The notes under the pieces were generated by a model. That model was not told the origin of the DNA and did not search any database. It saw only the letters and a program-made list of their open reading frames with translations. Positions 10,567 through 62,813 of a stretch of 64,000 nt of DNA are shown piece by piece; positions within the stretch are counted from its first letter, which is position 1, and each line of letters opens with the position of its first letter. This stretch comes from Amaurobius ferox (lineage: Eukaryota; Arthropoda; Arachnida; Araneae; Amaurobiidae): contig OX578149.1 of assembly GCA_951213105.1 (NCBI GenBank), positions 5,062,606 through 5,126,605 of the forward strand. Direction: 5' to 3'. The translations under genes were made by a program, and so were the position numbers.

Positions 10567-11060
10567 TTTAAAGAGCTTTGCTGCCCCAACTGGGAATCGA
10601 ACCCTGCAGTTCTGAACTGGCCAGCCGATGCTCTATCATTGAGCTACTGGGACTGCATTCCAAATTCTTATCATCAAAGTGGACTCTCCACTCTCTAATG
10701 CCAGATGGGCGGGCCACTGACCATATGACTGACCACCTTCTATTGGTTTTACCTCGGGTGAGTCTTCTGCTACTATTGCTTTTACCCATGTTAGTATCCT
10801 GCGTGGCCGTTATCCTCTCCATTTGAAATGGGCGCTCCACCTTTCAGAGTCCACTGAGTCCGTACTAGTCTTACTAGGATCACTTTCAAATCCCAACATT
10901 TTTGCACTCACCTTACAGGACTGATATGTTCGAGTGCCATTGTAAAGAGCGGTGTTGCCCCAAACGGGAATCGAACCCTGGATTTCCGAACTGGCCAGCC
11001 GTCGTTCTACCGTTAAGCTACTGGGACGAGATAGCAGAATCTTATCGTTGAAGTGCTTCA
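10567..11060 (-). mobile_element. TRIM-like element with tRNA-like terminal repeats, copy 1
   Basis: On the minus strand: left terminal repeat 11060-10941, internal part 10940-10687, right terminal repeat about 10686-10567. Each repeat holds a tRNA-like sequence (11027-10955 and 10652-10580) with GTCCCAGTAGCT at the 5' end, an A-box region and a B-box region (GGTTCGATTCC). After the left repeat the primer-site position reads TGGCACTCGAAC, against TGGCGCCCGAAC in copy 2. A small deletion removed the start of the right repeat, and no target duplication is recognisable, so this copy is older. Open frames inside it are read-through of the repeats. Confidence 0.8.
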
Positions 11061-23496: not shown

Positions 23497-24492
23497 TCTA
23501 ATGTGGGCAGCACATGACTTTGTCTGCAGACTCAAATTCATATTTTGTTTATTTCTTTAATAATTCGTTAGATTGTGTTTTATTGCACCAAATAACACTA
23601 AATTTACATTTTAAATTCAATTTTTGTTTTTATTTGGTAATTGGATATTTTCCCGAAATCGGCGTAACAAAAATGCAAGAAATCTCAAATATCTTGAGAA
23701 CGGTTAGTCCTAAAGTATAATGGAGTATGTTATATTCTTTTCCACGTCAAAACTTAAGTATAAAACAAAAACTCATTCAGCATATATATTCTTTTTTTTT
23801 TTTCGATTTTGGCGATTTTAGCGGGCCTTTTCGTAAAAAAAGGCAGGTTGTTCTTCTCCGAATTGTACCAAAATCTAATCAGCACTAGAATATCCCACAA
23901 GTAACTTATCTACCAATTTTTGTGAAATTGGGTCAATTGGTATTTTAGTTAGTGTGGATAAATGAAATTTTTGCGGGTCATTTCGTAAAAAAAAGCAAGT
24001 TGTTCTTTTCCAAATCGTATCAAAATTTAATCAGCACCAGGGTGACCTACGATTGACGTCAGTACCAAATTTTGTAAAATTTGATCAATTAGTTTTTCAG
24101 TTACAGTGGATATGGGCCTTTGAGGGCCATTTCGCAAAAAAGGCGGGTTGGTTTATTTCGAATAGTATCTATCCAAAACTAATCAGCACCAGGGTCATAT
24201 ACAAGTGACTTACCTACCAAATTTTATGAAATTCGGTCCATTAGTTTTTGAGTTAGAGTGGATACATACATTGCACAGACAGACACACAGACAGACACGC
24301 AGACAGGCACACAGCCACACAGACAGGCACACAGCCACACAGACAGGCACACACACAGACGTCACATTAAAAATAGTTTTTCCGTATTCTAAAGGTCTCG
24401 AAACGTATAGATCCGTCGAAAACTCGAATTGCGATTTTCGGCATGATTCCAATACTTTCCCTATACATTACCATGTATTGCAGGGAAAGTAA
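23497..24492 (+). mobile_element. family A element, copy A3b (longest copy)
   Basis: Complete ends: TCTAATGTGGGCAGCACATG at the left, and CCTATACATTACCATGTATT plus GCAGGGAAAGTAA at the right. It contains three copies of the 150-bp sub-repeat (near 23820, 23970 and 24125), each with GGCC or GGTC plus TTTCG, then AATCAGCACCAG and a TTAGT-TAGAGTGGATA box. A CAGACAGGCACACAGC minisatellite lies at 24275-24358. Terminal structure: ACTTTCCCTGCA near the 5' end of better copies is the exact reverse complement of TGCAGGGAAAGT at the 3' end. Confidence 0.85.
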
Positions 24493-24985: not shown

Positions 24986-25533
24986 CCTGATGTGGGCAGC
25001 ACATGACGATTTTTGCGGGCCATTTTGCGAAAAAAGGCAAGTTATTTTTTTCCAAATCGTACCAAAATCTAATCAGCACCAGGGTGACCCACAAGTGACT
25101 TATCTACCAAATTTTGTGAAATTTGATCCATTAAATTTTTAGCTAGAGTGGATACAAGCTTTTGCGGGCCATTTCACAAAAAAGACGGATTCTTTTATCC
25201 CGAATCGTACCCAAAACTAATCAGCACCAGATTCGTCCACAAATGACTTACCTACTAAATTTTATGAAATTCGGTCAATTAGTTTTTTAGTTAGAGTGGA
25301 TACAAAATCTGCACAGACAGACAGGCAAACACACAGACAGACACACAGACAGACACACAGATACACAGACGGACACACAGATACACAGACATACACACAG
25401 ACGTCACGCTAAAAATAGTTTTTTCGTATTCTAGAGGTCTCGAAACGTGTAGATCCGTCGAAAACTCGAGTTGCGATTTTCGACATGATTCCAATACTTT
25501 CCCTATATATTACCATGTATTGCAGGGAAAGTA
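24986..25533 (+). mobile_element. family A element, copy A4 (internally deleted)
   Basis: Both ends are present (CCTGATGTGGGCAGCACATG and the TACCATGTATTGCAGGG hairpin). About 320 bp after the 5' palindrome are deleted, so GCAGCACATGAC is joined to GATTTTTGCGGGCC. Two GCACCAG sub-repeats, a CAGACAGACACACAGA tract and CCGTCGAAAACTCGAG follow. Confidence 0.85.
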
Positions 25534-25711: not shown

Positions 25712-26452
25712 TCTGATGTGGGCAGCACATGACTTTCCCTGCAGACTTATATATACATTCTCTTATTTTAATTAAATTTAATTCACTATTAATTCAATTT
25801 TCGTTCTCATTTGGTAACTAGACCCATTTTCAAGGGTGGCGTAGAGAAAAAACAAAACAAAAAAAAATATCTCGAGAACGGCTAGTTCTAGTGTAATGGG
25901 GTTGGTCTTATCCTTTTCTTCGTTAAAAATTACGTATAAAACAAACATTTAATGGATATATTTCAGCATACGTAGTTTTTTATTTTAGATTTTGTCGATT
26001 TTTGCGGCCATTTTGCAAAAACAGGCAGGTTATTTTTTTCCGAACCGTACCAAAATCTAATCAGCACCAGGGTGATGCACAAGTGACGCATCTACCGAAT
26101 TTTGTGACATTCGGTCCATTAGTTTTTCAGTTAGAGTGGATACAAGCTTTTGCAGGCCATTTCGCAAAAAAAAGGCGGGTTCTTTTATCCCGAATCATAT
26201 CCAAAACTAATCAGCTCCAGACTCGTCCACAAGTGACTTACCTACCAAATTTTATGAAATTCGGTCAATTAGTTTTTTAGTTAGAGTGGATACAAAATCT
26301 GCACAGACAGACACACAGACGTCACGCTAAAAATGGTTTTTTCGCATTCTAGAGGTCTCGAAACGTGTAGTTCCGTCGAAAACTCGAGTTGCGAATTTCA
26401 ACATGATTCCAATACTTTCCCTATACATTACCATGTATTGCAGGGAAAGTAA
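25712..26452 (+). mobile_element. family A element, copy A5
   Basis: The clearest ends in the family: TCTGATGTGGGCAGCACATG, ACTTTCCCTGCAGAC, and at the right CTATACATTACCATGTAT, TGCAGGGAAAGTAA. Two sub-repeats and a very short CAGA tract. The 92-codon frame 26002-26280 is a translation of the sub-repeats. Confidence 0.85.
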
Positions 26453-30219: not shown

Positions 30220-30434
30220 TTTTTTATATAATTCTGTTAAATAGTATGCTGCGATTTTCGAAGCATTAACGAAATAATGAGAGAAGAGGGTTTGGTTTGC
30301 AGTAAGTCTCAATGATATGCCACGCTGCCAGGCGAGGCATGACTTTCATGGAGGACTTTTTAAGACAAACGGGACGGCATGAACATTAAATGCTAAGAAA
30401 TCCACAGAATCATCGCACACACCCTCTGTCACTA

Positions 30435-30923
30435 TGTAAAGAGCCTTGGAACCAACCGGGAATCGAACCCTGGATCTCCGAACTGCTCAGTCGACGCTCT
30501 ACCGTTGAGCGACTGGAACGAACTTGCGAGTTCTTATCGTTGAAGTGGACTCTGCGCTCTTCACCCCCTAATGTCAGATTGGCAGGCAGCTGACTATCTG
30601 AACGACCACCTCCTGCTATTTTTACCTCAGGTTAGCCTCCTGATACTACTATTTTTATCCAGGTTAGTATCACGTGTGGTCTTTATCCTCTCAATTTAAT
30701 CCATCTTACAGAGTCCACTAAATCAGTACTAGTCGTATTAGGTCACTTTCAAACCTTCGACATCTTTGGACTAACCTACAGGGTTCATGGGTTCGGGCGC
30801 CATTGTAAAGAACCTTGCTCTCCCAACTGGGAATCGAACCCTGGATCTCCAACCTGACCAGGCGACGCTCTGCTGTTGAGCTACTGGGACGAAAGGGCTC
30901 TTATCGTTGAAGTAGACTCTGCA
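30435..30923 (-). mobile_element. TRIM-like element with tRNA-like terminal repeats, copy 2 (best preserved)
   Basis: Minus strand: left repeat 30923-30804, internal 30803-30557, right repeat 30556-30435. The left repeat starts TGCAGAGTC and the right repeat ends CTTTACA. The 4 bp ACTA flank it on both sides (30431-30434 and 30924-30927). Directly after the left repeat, one base precedes TGGCGCCCGAAC, a 12-base match to the primer-binding site used by retroelements primed by tRNA-Lys. A purine-rich tract (TAGGGGGTGAAGAG) precedes the right repeat. Each repeat contains a 74-base tRNA-like sequence. No protein frame is present. Replication must depend on enzymes from another element. Confidence 0.85.
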
Positions 30924-31109
30924 ACTACCATTCGAGACAGGATTCGAACCTTTCCTTTGCGGAATAATTCGTCAATATGGTAGAAGCTGTAGACTTAACG
31001 TCACGGGTGTTTTCTCTCTACATAAGCCATTTACTTTAATTTACGTCTATTAACGCAGGCTGTCATTTCCGACGCCATTTATCATTTTTCACACTTTTAT
31101 GCGTTTTAT

Positions 31110-31562: not shown

Positions 31563-32038
31563 TACAGAATTCACTTCGACCATAAGAGCCATTTCGTCTC
31601 AGTAGCTCAACGATGCAGCGTCAGCTGGCCAGTTCGGAGATCCAGGGTTCGATACCGGAGTGGGTGAGCAAGGCTCTTTACAATGGCGCCCAAACCCATC
31701 AACCCTGTGGGTGACAGTGACCCTAGTGCGACTGGTACGGATTCAGTGGACCCTGGAAGATGGAGCGCCGATTTCAAATGGAGGATAACGACCCCGCAGG
31801 ATATTAACCTGTGTAAAAATAGTAGTAGCAAGAGGCTAATCTGAGGAAAAAAAAACAGGACGTGATCAGTCAGCTAGTTAGTTGCCCGTCAATCTGACAT
31901 CAGAAGGTGGAGAATGTAGAGTCCATTTCGACGATAAAAGCTTGCCATTTTTCCCCAATAACTCAACGGTAAAGCGTCGGCTGGCTAGTTGGGAAATCCA
32001 GAGTTCGATTCCCGTTTGGGACAGCAAGTCTGTATACA
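31563..32038 (+). mobile_element. TRIM-like element with tRNA-like terminal repeats, copy 3
   Basis: Plus strand: left repeat 31563-31682, internal 31683-31914, right repeat 31915-32038. Primer-site match TGGCGCCCAAAC at 31684-31695. Purine tract AGAAGGTGGAGAA just before 31915. The tRNA-like parts (about 31596-31668 and 31951-32024) keep AGTAGCTCAACG or a variant and GGTTCGAT or GTTCGATTCCC. It is bracketed by direct repeats X1 and X2 instead of a short target duplication. Confidence 0.8.
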
Positions 32039-32232
32039 ATATTAATGAGCTCATTATCGATGAATTGTAAAAAGAAAAAACTTTACATTTTTAAAAACTA
32101 TCAAGGACTTTAAAAACTATCAGAATACAGGATTTTTAAGAGGATGCAGTTATCAATGACTATGAAATGGTATGTATGACAATGCATGACTCGAGACAGC
32201 GCTTTGACCGTTAAGTTATATGGTGAATGTGT
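32039..32232 (+). repeat. repeat X, copy X2, directly right of TRIM copy 3
   Basis: It begins at ATATTAATGAGC immediately after the TRIM's right repeat and ends GGTGAATGTGT. It is the second copy of X. Confidence 0.75.
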
Positions 32233-34934: not shown

Positions 34935-35968
34935 TCACTTCCAAAAGTTAAGGCACGCAATGCAAATCTTAATTTTTCGAAACCGTATTTGAATTTGAGT
35001 GGCTGAAAATCGCTGCGAATGTAGATGGCAGTATGCAAATATCGTATGTTACAGCCAATCACGCATGACTGTCCGGATATATGCTAATTAGGCAGTCGTT
35101 GGAGACGCCAGCATTCTGAAGGATTTGAGGAAGTGCATTTAAATGCTGATACGAAGTGTTTATAACTTTTGTATGATTATTTATAATGATATTCGTGCTT
35201 CTATGGCTGAAAGAAGACGAATAACAGATAGTGCTCGCTGGCGTGCTATCGGACGCATTGAAGCAGGACAATCAAACAAAGATGTCGCTATTTTCTTTGG
35301 AGTTGATCATTCTGTAATTTCTTGATTATGGAAACAATTCCAAACAAGTCAAACAGTTGTCGGAAGACCCGTGTCCGGTCGTTAAAGGTTAACCACTCCC
35401 TCTGATGATCGGTACATTGCTATAGTAGTCAAGCGGAATCGACGAGCGACCTCCACAACTGCTACATCTTCGACTGCAGCAGCACTTGGTAAGACAATAT
35501 CTGCCAGTACCGTGCGCCGAAGGCTCCACGTGAAGGGACTGTACTCCCGAGTACCACGTTTTTGTATTCCACTAATCGTCCAAGCCAGGGGGCAAGCTTA
35601 AAGTGGTGTCGTCAACATGTCAATTGGACTGTCTCAGATTGGTGCAACGTCCTGTTCACGGACGAGCCCAGATTTGTCCTAGAATCAGATGATAAGCGTG
35701 TAAGGGTCTGGAGAGAAAGAGGCACAAGCAATCAGGCCAAGAACATCATCGAATATCACGCATTCAGAGGTGGCAGCGTCATGGTTTGGGCTGGCATTTC
35801 AATGGGATATCGCACACAGCTGCGCATCTTTAAAGGAAGTTCTATGACGGCTGCATGGTATCGGGATAAAGTCCTAGAACGTATTACGAGACTCTACGCT
35901 GCAGCAGTTGGTCCTGAGTTCCTTTTTATGGATGATAATGTCCGTCCCCATCAAGCTAACATCCTTGA
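34935..35968 (+). mobile_element. Tc1-like DNA transposon, 3' truncated
   Basis: The left side begins after an AT tract with CACTTCCAAAAGTTAAGGCA, placed about 270 bp before the transposase start, as expected for the inverted-repeat end of a Tc1 element inserted at TA. The matching right end (reverse complement) was not found downstream. The element breaks off inside the transposase at about 35968. Confidence 0.75.
35203..35968 (+). pseudogene. Tc1-like transposase, broken
   Basis: The relic reads MAERRRITDSARWRAIG then a helix-turn-helix (AGQSNKDVAIFFGVDHSVIS). Stops follow at 35323 (TGA, where an Arg codon is usual) and 35383 (TAA). A frameshift near 35580-35593, in a run of G residues, moves reading to the frame that continues LKWCRQHVNWTVSDW. 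The catalytic core shows the first Asp in LFTDEPRF and the second in FMDDNVRPH, the DDN-RPH signature of Tc1/mariner enzymes. The third acidic residue and the C-terminal part (about 80-100 residues) are missing because the sequence changes abruptly after ANILDG. The apparent start at 35562 is a TTG inside the gene and is not used. It cannot make active enzyme. Confidence 0.9.
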
Positions 35969-37182
35969 CGGTGTCATGTCGCAATTCTGCGCCATGAGCC
36001 TTTTCTTGTTTTTCTGTGAGAAAAACATCTTTCTTTCCTTCCGTGCCTGTGCTGTGTTTCGGTAAGCCTCGTTCGAATTGATTTTACGTTAAAATCTGAG
36101 TTTCGTCGAGAATTCGTTGGCTCGGCTAGGTTTTCTGTCTGGGCTGGGATGTGTGACGTATGTTCGGAAGAGATCGGCTGTTACCGGGGCGCGCTTGCCT
36201 GCCAATCAGGAAGCGGCGCGAGGAGAACTTTTCTGTGGGCCTCGAGAGACCCCAGGGATTGGAGCTGGAGTTTCCGACTGGTAAAGTCGCATCGTGAAAT
36301 TGTCTTAGATGAAGAAGACAAAGGGTTTTGGCCAAAATGGCTAAGGTGGCCGAAATGGGCATTTGTTTCGTATGAAACCGCCCTACTTTTCCGGAGCTGA
36401 TTGAAGAAGAACCTGGAAGATTTTCGACGTTCCTTTACAATTATTCTAAATTTATTCTTTTTATTCCAGGAAATCTATCCCGCGGACTTTTGATCCCATG
36501 GTATCTTTGAGATGAATTCTTGTCGTGGACGGCCTGGCAGCTAGCCATGTTAAGGAGAGATGACCAGTTATCCAAAATTTGGATTTTTACGTTCGGCATT
36601 CGGCCGTGTTTTCCTGTATGGAACATTTCTACACTTTGTTAAATTAATCGGAACACAGGTAAATTCTTTTATTCGGAACCAGACGTTCCGCTGCACCGCA
36701 GGCATAGAAAGATAATAATTGATTTATAATGGTTTACTCAGTTGAAAGTAAAATATTGTTGATTTAAGTTTATGATTTAAGAAATAACGTATTGATTTAA
36801 AAATAGATGTTGGTTGATAATTTTTCTGAACAGAGCATATATAATGAAATATGTGTTAATGATAAAGAAAGCTCTGAGTATTTTGAATTATAATTAAATA
36901 TATATATATTCATAAATTTGCAAGTCATTAAAATAAAAGGATTATTTGATTGATAAATGTGCCTGTTTTTTCCTTGCATTTTTTTCATGTTTTTACTCAC
37001 TGTATACCATTTAGGATATAATTCTCCTAAACTGGGAAAATCTTTAGAAATCGAACCTTGGGTATATTTTGGTGATGAAGTTAAGTATGATAATTACAAC
37101 TTCTTTTGTTTTGCTAAATTACGTTCACTGGTCTTGTGTGTAGCGGAATCGGTACATGCAGGTTGGTTCTGAAACCGCTACC
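35969..37182 (+). other. GC-richer block joined to the Tc1 relic, possible LTR
   Basis: It starts TGTCATGTCGCAATTCTGCG at the break in the transposase and reaches GAAACCGCTACCACA at 37182, followed by AATTGGTGCCTGTTCCC, which could be a primer site. TG...CA ends are consistent with an LTR of 1.2 kb. However, no second copy, gag or pol lies in the window, and the missing Tc1 part is not found on the far side. The part 36110-36400 is clearly richer in G and C than its surroundings. Possible splice signals (TTTATTCCAG at 36461-36470, ACACAGGTAAAT near 36654) are unproven. Confidence 0.3.
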
Positions 37183-51349: not shown

Positions 51350-51699
51350 AGATCTGGAAGTGATCCTAGTACGACTAGCACGAATTCGATGGACTCTGAT
51401 AGATGGCCAATTTCAAATTGAGACGAACACAGATTCAAACTGAGAATAACGACCACGCAGGATTTTAACCTGGGTAAAAATAATAGTCGCAGAAGGAGAA
51501 CCTGAGGTAATAATAGCAGAAGGTGCTCAGTCAGATGGTCAGTTGCTCGCCAACCTGACATTAGAGGGTGGAGAATGCAGAGTCCACTTCGACGATAAGA
51601 GCTTGCCATTTCGTCCCAGTAGCTCAACGGTAGAGCGTCGGCTGGCCAGAAAGGAAATCCAGGGTTCGATTCCCGGTTGAGGTAGCAAGGTTCTTTACA
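51350..51699 (+). mobile_element. TRIM-like element, copy 4 (5' truncated)
   Basis: The internal part (51350-51575) begins at GATCTGGAAGTGATCC, and the right terminal repeat runs 51576-51699. The purine tract AGAGGGTGGAGAA comes directly before TGCAGAGTCC. The tRNA-like sequence at 51613-51686 is among the cleanest: GTCCCAGTAGCTCAACGG, GGTTCGATTCCCGG. The end CTTTACA is intact. The left repeat and primer site are missing. Confidence 0.8.
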
Positions 51700-52205
51700 A
51701 ATTTGCTAAAAATTTGTCTCGAATATTCTAATAACATGAGCGAAAATAATGGTCCGTTTCAAAGATCTCCATCTAGATCAGAGGGCCAGTCTTTTAACAG
51801 CCTATCCCAATCCATACTTATACTATCCCTTACTTAACTAAAACGTAACTAAAGTTAAAAGTTACACTGATATAAACTAACTCTATTCATTTTTAATGGC
51901 AAAAAATATAAACTACGACGCCTCGTGGATGGAACCCACGTATTTTATTTAAGTATTTTATAACTTCTCTGTGACATCGATGCTAAAAATACATCCAATG
52001 ATGCCTACGCGAGAGTCACCTTCGCAAGTCGTGTGAAATCATTCTGGAGGAGAGAAAAACATTAATTTATGGAAACATTCATTAATTTATGGAAATATAA
52101 CATGGGTTGGGATGCATTTTTATCATAAATCCAATTTGTATTACCATATATAAATTTTTTAGAAATACATTGCAATGTCGCGTCATTAGAATATTAAATC
52201 GTGCA
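51700..52205. other. anonymous DNA, no gene seen
   Basis: A short duplication (ATTAATTTATGGAAA twice near 52060-52097) is the only feature noted. Confidence 0.4.
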
Positions 52206-52515: not shown

Positions 52516-52831
52516 TGGATAGAATCCTGTTTAAAAGGGGTTCTTTAAGGCTCAATGATCCGGAAACTTAAGAGTTTCAATCATTCTAGTGAAAAATAAT
52601 CGCGATACAATATTTGTGTTTCTGACGCCATTATCCCCCTTCGGGGTCAAGTGGGGGGTTACATTATCAAGTAGGATATCCATGAAAATATTTTCAAACC
52701 CTTTAAAGTAAAAGATAACACGCTATAAAGGTCATCCTTTGGACCGATATTTCAAACTTTTGCTAAAATATTTGTGAAAAAAGTTTTTAAAATATAGATT
52801 CTGGTGTGAGAAGGAGGAGTAGAGTCTCCAG
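52516..52831. other. anonymous DNA, no gene seen
   Basis: Nothing recognised between the G2 element and the minisatellite. Confidence 0.4.
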
Positions 52832-53111
52832 AGTCCTACTCATTCTCCAGAGTCCTACTCATTCTCCAGAGTCCTACTCATTCTCCAGAGTCCTACTCAT
52901 TCCCCAGAGTCCTACTCATTCTCCAGAGTCCTACTCATTCTCCAGAGTCCTACTCATTCTCCAGAGTCCTACTAATTCTCCAGAGTCCTACTCATTCCCC
53001 AGAGTCCTACTCATTCTCCAGAGTCCTACTCATTCTCCAGAGTCCTACTCATTCTCCAGAGTCCTACTCATTCTCCAGAGTCGTACTCATTCTCCAGAGT
53101 CCTACTCATTC
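52832..53111 (+). repeat. 19-bp minisatellite, 15 units
   Basis: Unit AGTCCTACTCATTCTCCAG, with starts every 19 bases from 52832 to 53098 without a single indel. Variants: CCCCAG in place of CTCCAG at 52902 and 52997 (exactly five units apart), ACTAAT at 52971, TCGTAC at 53081. Since 19 is not a multiple of 3, the long frame across it (52806-53159) repeats every 57 bases and is not a protein gene. Confidence 0.95.
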
Positions 53112-61949: not shown

Positions 61950-62096
61950 CAAACATGAGTGAGGATGGAAAACTGCAGCGTCCACTTCGACGACAATAGC
62001 AATTTTGGTAGCAGTAGCTCAACGGCAGGGCGTCGGTTGGCCAGTCACGAGATCCAGGGTTCGATTCTCGGTTGAGGCAGCAAGGGTCGTGAAATA
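61950..62096 (+). mobile_element. TRIM-like element, copy 5 (right terminal repeat only)
   Basis: A short piece of the internal purine tract (GAGGATGGAAAAC), then a terminal repeat from 61974 with AGTAGCTCAACGGCAGG and GGTTCGATTCTCGG. Because part of the internal region is kept, this is a 5' truncation and not a solo terminal repeat. Its end (GGTCGTGAAATA) is diverged. Confidence 0.7.
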
Positions 62097-62317: not shown

Positions 62318-62813
62318 TGTAAAGAAACTTGCTGCCCCAACCTGAATCGAACCCTGGATCTCCGAACTGCCGACACTCTACCGTTGAGCGACTGGGACGA
62401 AATGGCAAGCTCTTATCGTCGAAGTGGACTCTGCATTCTCCACCCTCTCATGTCAGAGTGACGTGCAACTGACCATCTGACTGACCACCTCCTACTATTT
62501 TTACCCCAGGTTAGTCTCCTGATACTACTATTTTTACCCAGGTTAGTATCCTGCGGGGTCGTTATCCTCTCCATTTGAAATCGGCGCTCCATCTTCCAGA
62601 GTCCGCTGAAACCGTTCTAGTTGTTCTAGGGTCACTTTCAGACCTGCGACATTTTTGCATTACCCTACAAGGTTGATTGGTTTGGGCACCATTGTAAAGA
62701 GCCTTACTCCTCCAACCGGGAATCGAACCCTGGATCTCCGAATTGCCCAGCCGATGCTCTACCGGTGAGATACTGGGACGAAATGGCAAGTTCTTATCGA
62801 AGTGGACTCTGCA
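62318..62813 (-). mobile_element. TRIM-like element with tRNA-like terminal repeats, copy 6
   Basis: Minus strand: left repeat 62813-62693 (121 bp), internal 62692-62436, right repeat 62435-62318 (118 bp). The 4 bp AGCT occur immediately on both sides (62314-62317 and 62814-62817). Primer-site position: TGGTGCCCAAAC. Purine tract: AGAGGGTGGAGAA directly before the right repeat. The tRNA-like sequence in the left repeat (62779-62705) keeps GGTTCGATTCCCGG. The right-repeat one has a few deletions. Confidence 0.85.

What the first reader, a model, noticed from the sequence alone, without database searches (positions are those of the whole stretch)
30435..30923. A miniature LTR-type retroelement (TRIM) whose terminal repeats contain a tRNA-like gene
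Seen: direct terminal repeats of 118-124 bp, TG...CA ends, a TGGCGCCCGAAC primer-site match one base inside the left repeat, a purine tract (AGAGGGTGGAGAA in copies 4 and 6) touching the right repeat, and a 4-bp ACTA target duplication. The same plan is found at 10567, 31563 and 62318, with truncated copies at 51350 and 61950. Known: TRIMs are LTR, primer site, short spacer, purine tract, LTR with no genes, and plant Cassandra elements carry 5S rRNA promoter sequence in their LTRs. Inference: this family carries a pol III tRNA-type promoter in its LTR. I do not know whether an animal example with a tRNA gene in the LTR has been described.
Basis: partly seen in the sequence, partly recalled or inferred. 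Interest (0 to 1): 0.9.

Follow-up and report, generated by a model that had tools for sequence, protein, structure and literature searches.

The report
Spider mini-retrotransposon with tRNA-like LTRs
This 489-base piece of spider DNA is a gene-less LTR retrotransposon with a tRNA-like sequence in both of its ends, a kind named Helenus in 2024; its sense strand has no run of four T's, as would suit transcription by RNA polymerase III, and a larger element in the same genome that shares its primer site is its likely helper.

Summary
The element (minus strand) has LTRs with TG...CA ends (one base changed in its 3' LTR), a TGGCGCCCGAAC primer site one base inside the 5' LTR, a purine tract and an ACTA duplication. 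The host is the spider Amaurobius ferox.

Of 39 two-LTR copies, 19 have an exact 4-bp duplication at the projected ends, and the 5' and 3' LTR column majorities are identical over 124 positions: against a dimeric SINE. Within-copy LTR identity (84.7%) barely exceeds random pairing (83.9%), which I read as one old burst. An internal signature occurs 14,376 times.

Kojima 2024 (PMC10886601) already named such elements Helenus, in six animal phyla; its Table 1 lists no chelicerate. So: a new member of a known kind.

Two additions. Sense-strand runs of four or more T (pol III stop signals) number 14 against 65 in dinucleotide shuffles, while A-runs are not depleted. A larger element (about 4.57 kb, inferred) with an otherwise different 320-bp LTR shares the LTR's last bases, primer site and about 20 bases of leader: a likely helper. 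Pol III transcription is untested; solo LTRs and the helper's coding capacity are unresolved.

The parts
30435..30923 (-). whole element (Helenus-type TRIM)
30804..30923 (-). 5' LTR (sense orientation), TGCAGAG...TTTACA
30435..30556 (-). 3' LTR, CGCAGAG...TTTACA (first base changed)
30819..30890 (-). tRNA-like sequence in the 5' LTR (RF00005, 28.6 bits, gathering 29)
30448..30519 (-). tRNA-like sequence in the 3' LTR (RF00005, 27.2 bits, gathering 29)
30873..30883 (-). A-box-like TAGCTCAACAG in the 5' LTR
   Evidence: read; motif named after PMC10886601
30830..30840 (-). B-box-like GGTTCGATTCC in the 5' LTR
   Evidence: read; motif named after PMC10886601
30791..30802 (-). primer-binding site TGGCGCCCGAAC (tRNA-Lys type), one base inside the 5' LTR
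30557..30569 (-). purine tract AGGGGGTGAAGAG next to the 3' LTR
30924..30927 (.). target-site duplication ACTA (+ strand)
30431..30434 (.). target-site duplication ACTA (+ strand)
62318..62813 (-). second two-LTR copy, duplication AGCT/AGCT in sense orientation
31563..32040 (+). third two-LTR copy, no duplication left
10569..11055 (-). fourth two-LTR copy, worn ends, no duplication left
51355..51700 (+). partial copy: part of the internal region and the 3' LTR
61974..62088 (+). single LTR, possibly a worn solo LTR (flanks AAAC/TAAC)

Best explanation
This is a Helenus-type TRIM of a spider (Amaurobius ferox): a gene-less LTR retrotransposon of 489 bp whose LTRs each carry a tRNA-like sequence with A- and B-box motifs that is predicted to start RNA polymerase III transcription, and that was likely copied in trans by a larger Gypsy-like element. 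[quoted passage not shown] As the sense strand of the family carries few runs of four T's, it would read through both LTRs and stop at a T-run in the flank. The repeated part (R) would then be the stretch from the tRNA-like start to the LTR end. tRNA-Lys would prime at TGGCGCCCGAAC, the short first DNA would jump to the matching 3' LTR, and the extra flank at the end of the RNA would be left behind, so that no stop signal is needed inside the LTR. The purine tract would prime the second strand, and an integrase supplied in trans would make the 4-bp duplication. Shown: anatomy, duplications, equal 5' and 3' LTR majorities, primer-site match, T-run depletion, and a larger element with the same LTR end, primer site and leader start. 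Inferred: transcription, R, use of that helper.
For: 4-bp duplications at exact projected ends in 19 of 39 copies; per-base match 0.67-0.74 at the four positions, 0.10-0.46 for other position pairs. About 0.85^4 = 0.52 would survive at the LTR identity measured, close to 19/39 = 0.49. 5' and 3' LTR column majorities identical over 124 positions. Primer site 12 of 12 in 17 of 39 copies and at least 11 of 12 in 31 of 39; four exact copies of a 22-base tRNA-Lys 3' end in the host. Whole-length Rfam tRNA matches up to 42.6 bits. Columns of an A-box and a B-box window (the latter set two bases late in the script) vary less than other non-CpG columns: 17 columns, 0.051, against 89 columns, 0.087, one-sided p = 0.017. 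Sense T4+ runs 14 against 65 (sd 6.4, minimum 51) in dinucleotide shuffles; A4+ runs 101 against 85; T4+ per kb 0.71 in elements and 13.8 in flanks. A nine-LTR array of about 3.2 kb (L049) has no sense T4 run. Arrays of LTR-internal units of 380-382 bp. Larger element with ...CTTTACA-N-TGGCGCCCGAACAGG and an AAATAACCCNGTAGGTTAG leader, two LTR hits 4,245 bases apart, LTR of about 320 bp with AATAAA, protease-like remnants.
Against: No transcript, small RNA or pol III binding was examined. Within-copy LTR identity hardly exceeds random pairing. Only 4 of 10 LTRs in the window match the tRNA model at E <= 1, this copy's two below the gathering score; ARAGORN calls a tRNA in 4 of 38 loci, with three isotypes. 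The array L048 has one TTTT in each of its 8 LTRs and L002 has two, so T-run absence is not universal; and pieces of the larger, presumably pol II element also have fewer T-runs than A-runs (4.4 and 13.6 per kb), so part of the bias may not come from pol III. The helper's protease match is weak (Pfam E = 0.078, 13.6 bits, cut-off 26, frame broken), and another of the five pieces gave two presumably chance matches with better E-values (0.018, 0.028); no RT was seen. With primer sites masked, two of five helper copies (L073, L081) score below the best random genome piece. The 35 copies from outside the window are the best matches to the window copy, not a random draw.
Confidence: 0.85

Rival explanations
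1. The element is a TRIM, but the tRNA-like sequence is a passenger or relic: transcription would be by RNA polymerase II from the LTR or from neighbours, and the box motifs are kept by descent.
For: No pol III transcript is shown here or, by its own text, for published Helenus. The tRNA match is weak in the window copies. The larger element has AATAAA in its LTR, so the likely helper would be a pol II element.
Against: Sense-only depletion of T-runs in the TRIM (14 against 65); lower variation in box columns; the tRNA-like stretch is whole, in sense orientation, in both LTRs. No AATAAA appears in the 124-base LTR majority.
Confidence: 0.2
2. It is a dimeric tRNA-derived SINE inserted by a LINE through target-primed reverse transcription; the two tRNA-like halves only look like LTRs.
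For: Within-copy identity of the halves is close to that of random pairs (0.847 and 0.839); tRNA-like sequence with A and B boxes; no genes.
Against: 4-bp duplications at exact ends, primer site and purine tract, 5' and 3' halves with identical majorities, arrays that share LTRs between units.
Confidence: 0.03
3. It is a unit of a dispersed tandem repeat (satellite-like spread by recombination), with the arrays as the source form and the single copies as two-LTR fragments.
For: Arrays of 4, 8 and 9 LTRs exist, with near-identical units.
Against: Single copies have precise ends and 4-bp duplications; array units are more alike than scattered copies, so the arrays look younger.
Confidence: 0.02

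Closest known systems
Helenus (Kojima 2024, PMC10886601): TRIMs with a tRNA-derived sequence in their LTRs
   Same: Two short LTRs with a tRNA-like sequence holding A and B boxes, primer site and purine tract, 4-bp duplications in animals, tRNA-Lys among the primers, length range 311-1263 bp, tandem arrays in the zebrafish family.
   Different: Host is a spider; Table 1 lists only Hymenoptera among Arthropoda. T-runs and a same-genome larger element sharing the leader were examined here.
[quoted passage not shown]
   Same: Pol III-type promoter sequence in both LTRs; tandem arrays of LTR-internal units (PMC7215508, passages).
   Different: 5S rRNA, not tRNA; described with conserved pol III terminators in its LTRs, whereas the present family has few sense T4 runs.
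Animal TRIMs of ant, tapeworm and bivalve (PMC3532108, PMC4558846, PMC6934838; search listing only)
   Same: Short non-autonomous LTR elements in animals.
   Different: The abstracts as listed mention no tRNA-like sequence in the LTR; the papers were not read.
tRNA-derived SINEs
   Same: tRNA-like sequence with A and B boxes, no genes, copied in trans.
   Different: SINEs use target-primed reverse transcription and have no LTRs, primer site, purine tract or 4-bp duplications (established knowledge; also PMC10886601 introduction).

Membership tests
TRIM | Two direct LTRs with TG...CA ends, under 1 kb, no genes | tested here: met
   489 bp; among the 25 longest open frames of the window listed none overlaps 30435-30923 (frames under 90 aa not examined)
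TRIM | Primer-binding site just inside the 5' LTR and purine tract before the 3' LTR | tested here: met
   at least 11 of 12 bases in 31 of 39 copies; AGAGGGTGGAGAA abutting the 3' LTR in 21 of 39
TRIM | Short (4-6 bp) target-site duplications | tested here: met
   19 of 39 exact at 4 bp, 2 of 39 at 5 bp
TRIM | LTRs identical at insertion, so within-copy identity above between-copy identity | tested here: inconclusive
   0.847 against 0.839; 10 of 20,000 permutations reach it; 5' and 3' majorities identical
TRIM | Solo LTRs | tested here: inconclusive
   one possible case at 61974; the genome-wide LTR count was asked eight times and never answered
Helenus | tRNA-derived sequence inside the LTR with box A (TRGCY, YGG) and box B (GGTTC) | tested here: met
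   TAGCTCAACGG and GGTTCGATTCC in the LTR majority; Rfam tRNA matches
Helenus | 4-bp duplications in animals | tested here: met
Helenus | Mobilised by a Gypsy-type element (inferred in the paper for animals) | tested here: inconclusive
   larger element with shared LTR end, primer site and leader start; protease-like remnants only, no RT seen
Helenus | Transcription by RNA polymerase III (expected, not shown, in the paper) | not testable with these tools
   no RNA data here; for the paper's own caution
dimeric tRNA SINE | Target-primed insertion: longer variable duplications, 3' tail, no primer site or purine tract | tested here: not met

The most novel reading that the evidence does not exclude
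A pol III-driven LTR retrotransposon that has given up an internal stop signal: its sense strand was kept free of T-runs so that pol III crosses both LTRs and stops in the flank, and the first-strand jump trims the tail. It is served by a pol II helper whose leader can carry several copies of the LTR-end plus primer-site module, and it shares with that helper only the last LTR bases, the primer site and about 20 bases of leader.
Probability: 0.4. Interest if true: 0.6.

Novelty: new member of a known kind. Interest (0 to 1): 0.42.

Why it matters
It extends tRNA-bearing TRIMs to chelicerates, as far as my searches reach. It offers a test of the pol III idea that needs no RNA, an idea which the 2024 paper leaves without experimental proof: if pol III makes the full-length RNA, the sense strand should avoid T-runs, and the same count can be made on published Helenus, Ajax and Cassandra sequences. 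A larger element in the same genome that shares the primer site and leader start, but hardly the LTR, gives an animal pair in which to ask what a TRIM must keep to be copied. With some 14,000 internal signatures, the family could also inflate tRNA gene counts in spider annotations.

Tried and rejected
Dimeric SINE: rejected on duplications, ends and equal 5' and 3' majorities. Functional tRNA gene: rejected; ARAGORN finds none in the window and 4 in 38 loci, as Leu, Gly, Asn and Gly. A copy number above 100,000, guessed from six copies in 64 kb: rejected; 19 random 10-kb pieces gave 0 hits and the internal signature count is 14,376 with 1 in the control. Proving the helper by Pfam on unbroken pieces: one weak protease match in 5 pieces, next to two presumably chance matches in another piece with better E-values. 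Spidroin search for naming the host: not answered; the host was named by COX1 and by assembly span and chromosome lengths instead. LTR to internal ratio for solo LTRs: not completed (eight requests). Cassandra's first description (PMC2311327): not held. Longest open frames of the window against Pfam: no match at E 0.01 in 3 of 3.

Full report
Host. The window lies in G000:C18:5062606-5126605 of a 3,564,777,782-base assembly in 276 contigs. Its COX1 (locus L031, read with table 5) is 93% identical to an Amaurobius entry and at most 88% to the other 119 proteins listed. The Amaurobius ferox assembly spans 3,564.8 Mb, with 23 chromosomes, a longest scaffold of 214.31 Mb and chromosomes of 182.28, 180.23 and 172.74 Mb (PMC11249506, abstract and passages). 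Contigs C2, C1, C3 and C5 have 214,309,029, 182,283,388, 180,232,785 and 172,735,607 bases. I take the host as A. ferox; the scaffold number differs (288 in the paper).

Observation. The element at 30435-30923 is on the minus strand and has the features claimed, with one base changed at the start of its 3' LTR. Four two-LTR copies and two partial copies lie in the window; two of the four keep exact 4-bp duplications.

Family sample. All 50 places listed were used, as L001-L008 and L036-L067, several places sharing one array. Dropped before counting: L001 (the window copy itself) and L003 (same array as L002). This leaves 44 groups with the window: 39 two-LTR copies (4 in the window, 35 elsewhere), three arrays (L002, L048, L049) and two single LTRs in the window. 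My notebook gives the split of the 39 as 5 and 34, which is wrong. The 35 are best matches to the window copy, so the sample leans towards complete and similar copies.

Ends. At the projected ends 19 of 39 copies have an exact 4-base match and 2 of 39 a 5-base match. Of 48 shifted offsets two (10 and 9 matches) overlap the same duplication, and 46 give 0-3. Each of the four positions matches in 67-74% of copies, other position pairs in 10-46%. With within-copy LTR identity of 0.847, about half of 4-bp duplications should survive, as seen.

LTR pairs. Within-copy identity is 0.847; between copies it is 0.839 (5' to 3'), 0.837 (5' to 5') and 0.843 (3' to 3'). 10 of 20,000 permutations reach the observed mean. 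The majorities of 39 5' LTRs and 39 3' LTRs differ at none of 124 positions. Divergence from the column majority averages 9%. One old burst of nearly identical copies would give this; a dimeric SINE would be expected to show fixed differences between its halves.

tRNA-like sequence. In the 9 of 38 loci given to, 30 of 33 LTRs match Rfam's tRNA model from position 1 to 71 at E <= 1, 20 of them at or above the gathering score of 29 bits, best 42.6. In the window 4 of 10 LTRs match, at 27.2-30.8 bits. ARAGORN calls a tRNA in 4 of 38 loci, and on the LTR majority only at a relaxed setting, as Gly(gcc) with a mismatch in the anticodon stem. I read it as tRNA-derived, not as a working tRNA gene. Columns in an A-box and a B-box window (the latter set two bases late) vary less than other non-CpG columns: 0.051 (17 columns) against 0.087 (89), one-sided p = 0.017; this is modest.

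Primer site and purine tract. TGGCGCCCGAAC is perfect in 17 of 39 copies and has at least 11 of 12 bases in 31 of 39. Four exact copies of a 22-base tRNA-Lys 3' end (recalled sequence) occur in the genome, none in the control, so the host has a fitting primer. AGAGGGTGGAGAA abuts the projected 3' LTR start in 21 of 39 copies.

T-runs. In the 39 copies there are 14 sense runs of four or more T, against 45 (sd 6.5) in single-base shuffles and 65 (sd 6.4, minimum 51) in dinucleotide shuffles; runs of four or more A number 101, against 92 and 85. Flanks have 13.8 T-runs per kb, elements 0.71. 26 of 39 copies have none; this copy has none. L049, nine LTRs and eight internal parts over about 3.2 kb, has none. 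Against the pattern: L048 has one TTTT in each of its 8 LTRs, in the LTR head, and L002 has two. Pieces of the larger element (3,888 bases) have 4.4 T-runs and 13.6 A-runs per kb, so part of the strand bias may be general. The first T-run downstream of the 3' LTR lies 2-276 bases away in 32 of 39 copies; 7 have none in the flank held.

Copy number and arrays. A 24-base internal signature with up to 3 mismatches, which finds 36 of 39 sampled copies, occurs 14,376 times, with 1 in the control: about once per 248 kb. The window, with six copies in 64 kb, is a local cluster; 19 random 10-kb pieces have no match at E <= 1e-5. The array units are 380-382 bp and 95.8-100% alike, more than the scattered copies, so the arrays likely grew later.

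Larger element. The pattern TTTACANTGGCGCCCGAACAG with up to one mismatch occurs 2,004 times, control 0. I fetched 15 pieces holding 16 of the 69 exact hits listed, chosen partly for odd letters before the primer site. Ten carry TRIM sequence, and five (L071, L073, L076, L079, L081) are another element. In these an LTR ending ...TTTACA is followed by N-TGGCGCCCGAACAGG and, in some, by further modules TTTACA-N-TGG: 1, 2, 1, 6 and 3 such motifs in the five, in that order. Downstream comes AAATAACCCNGTAGGTTAG or a variant; the TRIM has AAATCAACCCTGTAGGTTAG. With primer sites masked, three of the five score 28-31, reached by 0-3 of 1,000 single-base shuffles for three TRIM copies tested; L073 scores 23 (8-11 of 1,000) and L081 20 (54-73 of 1,000). 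The best of 399 random genome pieces scores 27 for the one TRIM copy so tested, so two of five are not above it. A 118-base LTR query finds 40 scored places of 642 candidates, 39 of them 95-97% alike, including two pairs 4,245 bases apart on C7. Pieces of one of these show a purine-rich stretch before TGTTGG, an LTR of about 320 bases with AATAAA ending CTTTACA, and, in broken frames, VLIDTGSE and VILGIDLL, which I recall as typical of retroviral-type proteases. Pfam's Asp_protease matches at E = 0.078, under its cut-off, while another piece gives two presumably chance matches at 0.018 and 0.028. I infer an element of about 4.57 kb, likely Gypsy-like and likely the helper. One TRIM copy, L078, also carries three primer-site modules.

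Prior work. Kojima 2024 (PMC10886601; parts 1-4 of 6 of the text, the figures and tables section, and a term search seen) defines Helenus as TRIMs with a tRNA-derived LTR sequence, with 4-bp duplications and likely Gypsy helpers in animals. Table 1 lists only Hymenoptera among Arthropoda, and the text holds no 'spider', 'arachnid' or 'chelicer'. Its supplement and Repbase were not seen. Listings showed me no report for spiders; they cover only the papers held and the terms used. Cassandra arrays and terminators are from PMC7215508 (passages). One search for 'multiple primer binding sites' with 'retrotransposon' listed one paper, on immune responses to endogenous retroviruses.

Verdict. By the structural features tested, a Helenus-type TRIM: a new member of a known kind in a host group not listed for it. 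The mechanism beyond structure is inferred.

Noticed in passing
L079 (G000:C19:100435748-100436218), also L073 and L081: Leader of the larger LTR element repeats a module TTTACA-N-TGG... (LTR end plus primer site): six strict motifs in L079, two in L073, three in L081, one each in L071 and L076.
   Followed up: partly
L078 (G000:C17:123961260-123961730): A TRIM copy with three primer-site modules in a row.
   Followed up: no
L049, L048, L002: Tandem arrays of 9, 8 and 4 LTRs with 380-382-bp units, some units identical.
   Followed up: partly
window 1-64000: Six TRIM copies or pieces in 64 kb against about one internal signature per 248 kb genome-wide: a local cluster, about 5 Mb from the end of contig C18.
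   Followed up: partly
window 23815-24360, 25011-25403, 26000-26295: Related units of 148-152 bp in two or three tandem copies; the first two are followed by ACAGACAG-type microsatellites.
   Followed up: no
window 52825-53111: A 19-bp unit repeated 15 times at 97% match.
   Followed up: no
window 35493-36062: Longest open frame (190 aa, + strand) contains WCNVLFTDEPRF, which I recall as Tc1/mariner-like; Pfam gave no match at E 0.01.
   Followed up: partly
window 62492-62553: A tandem repeat of a 32-bp unit, 1.9 copies, inside the internal part of the TRIM copy at 62318.
   Followed up: no
G000 C18:46387339, C14:14907619, C17:83013789 and others: Many copies of mitochondrial COX1 on chromosome-size contigs, some covering nearly the whole Pfam model.
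   Followed up: no
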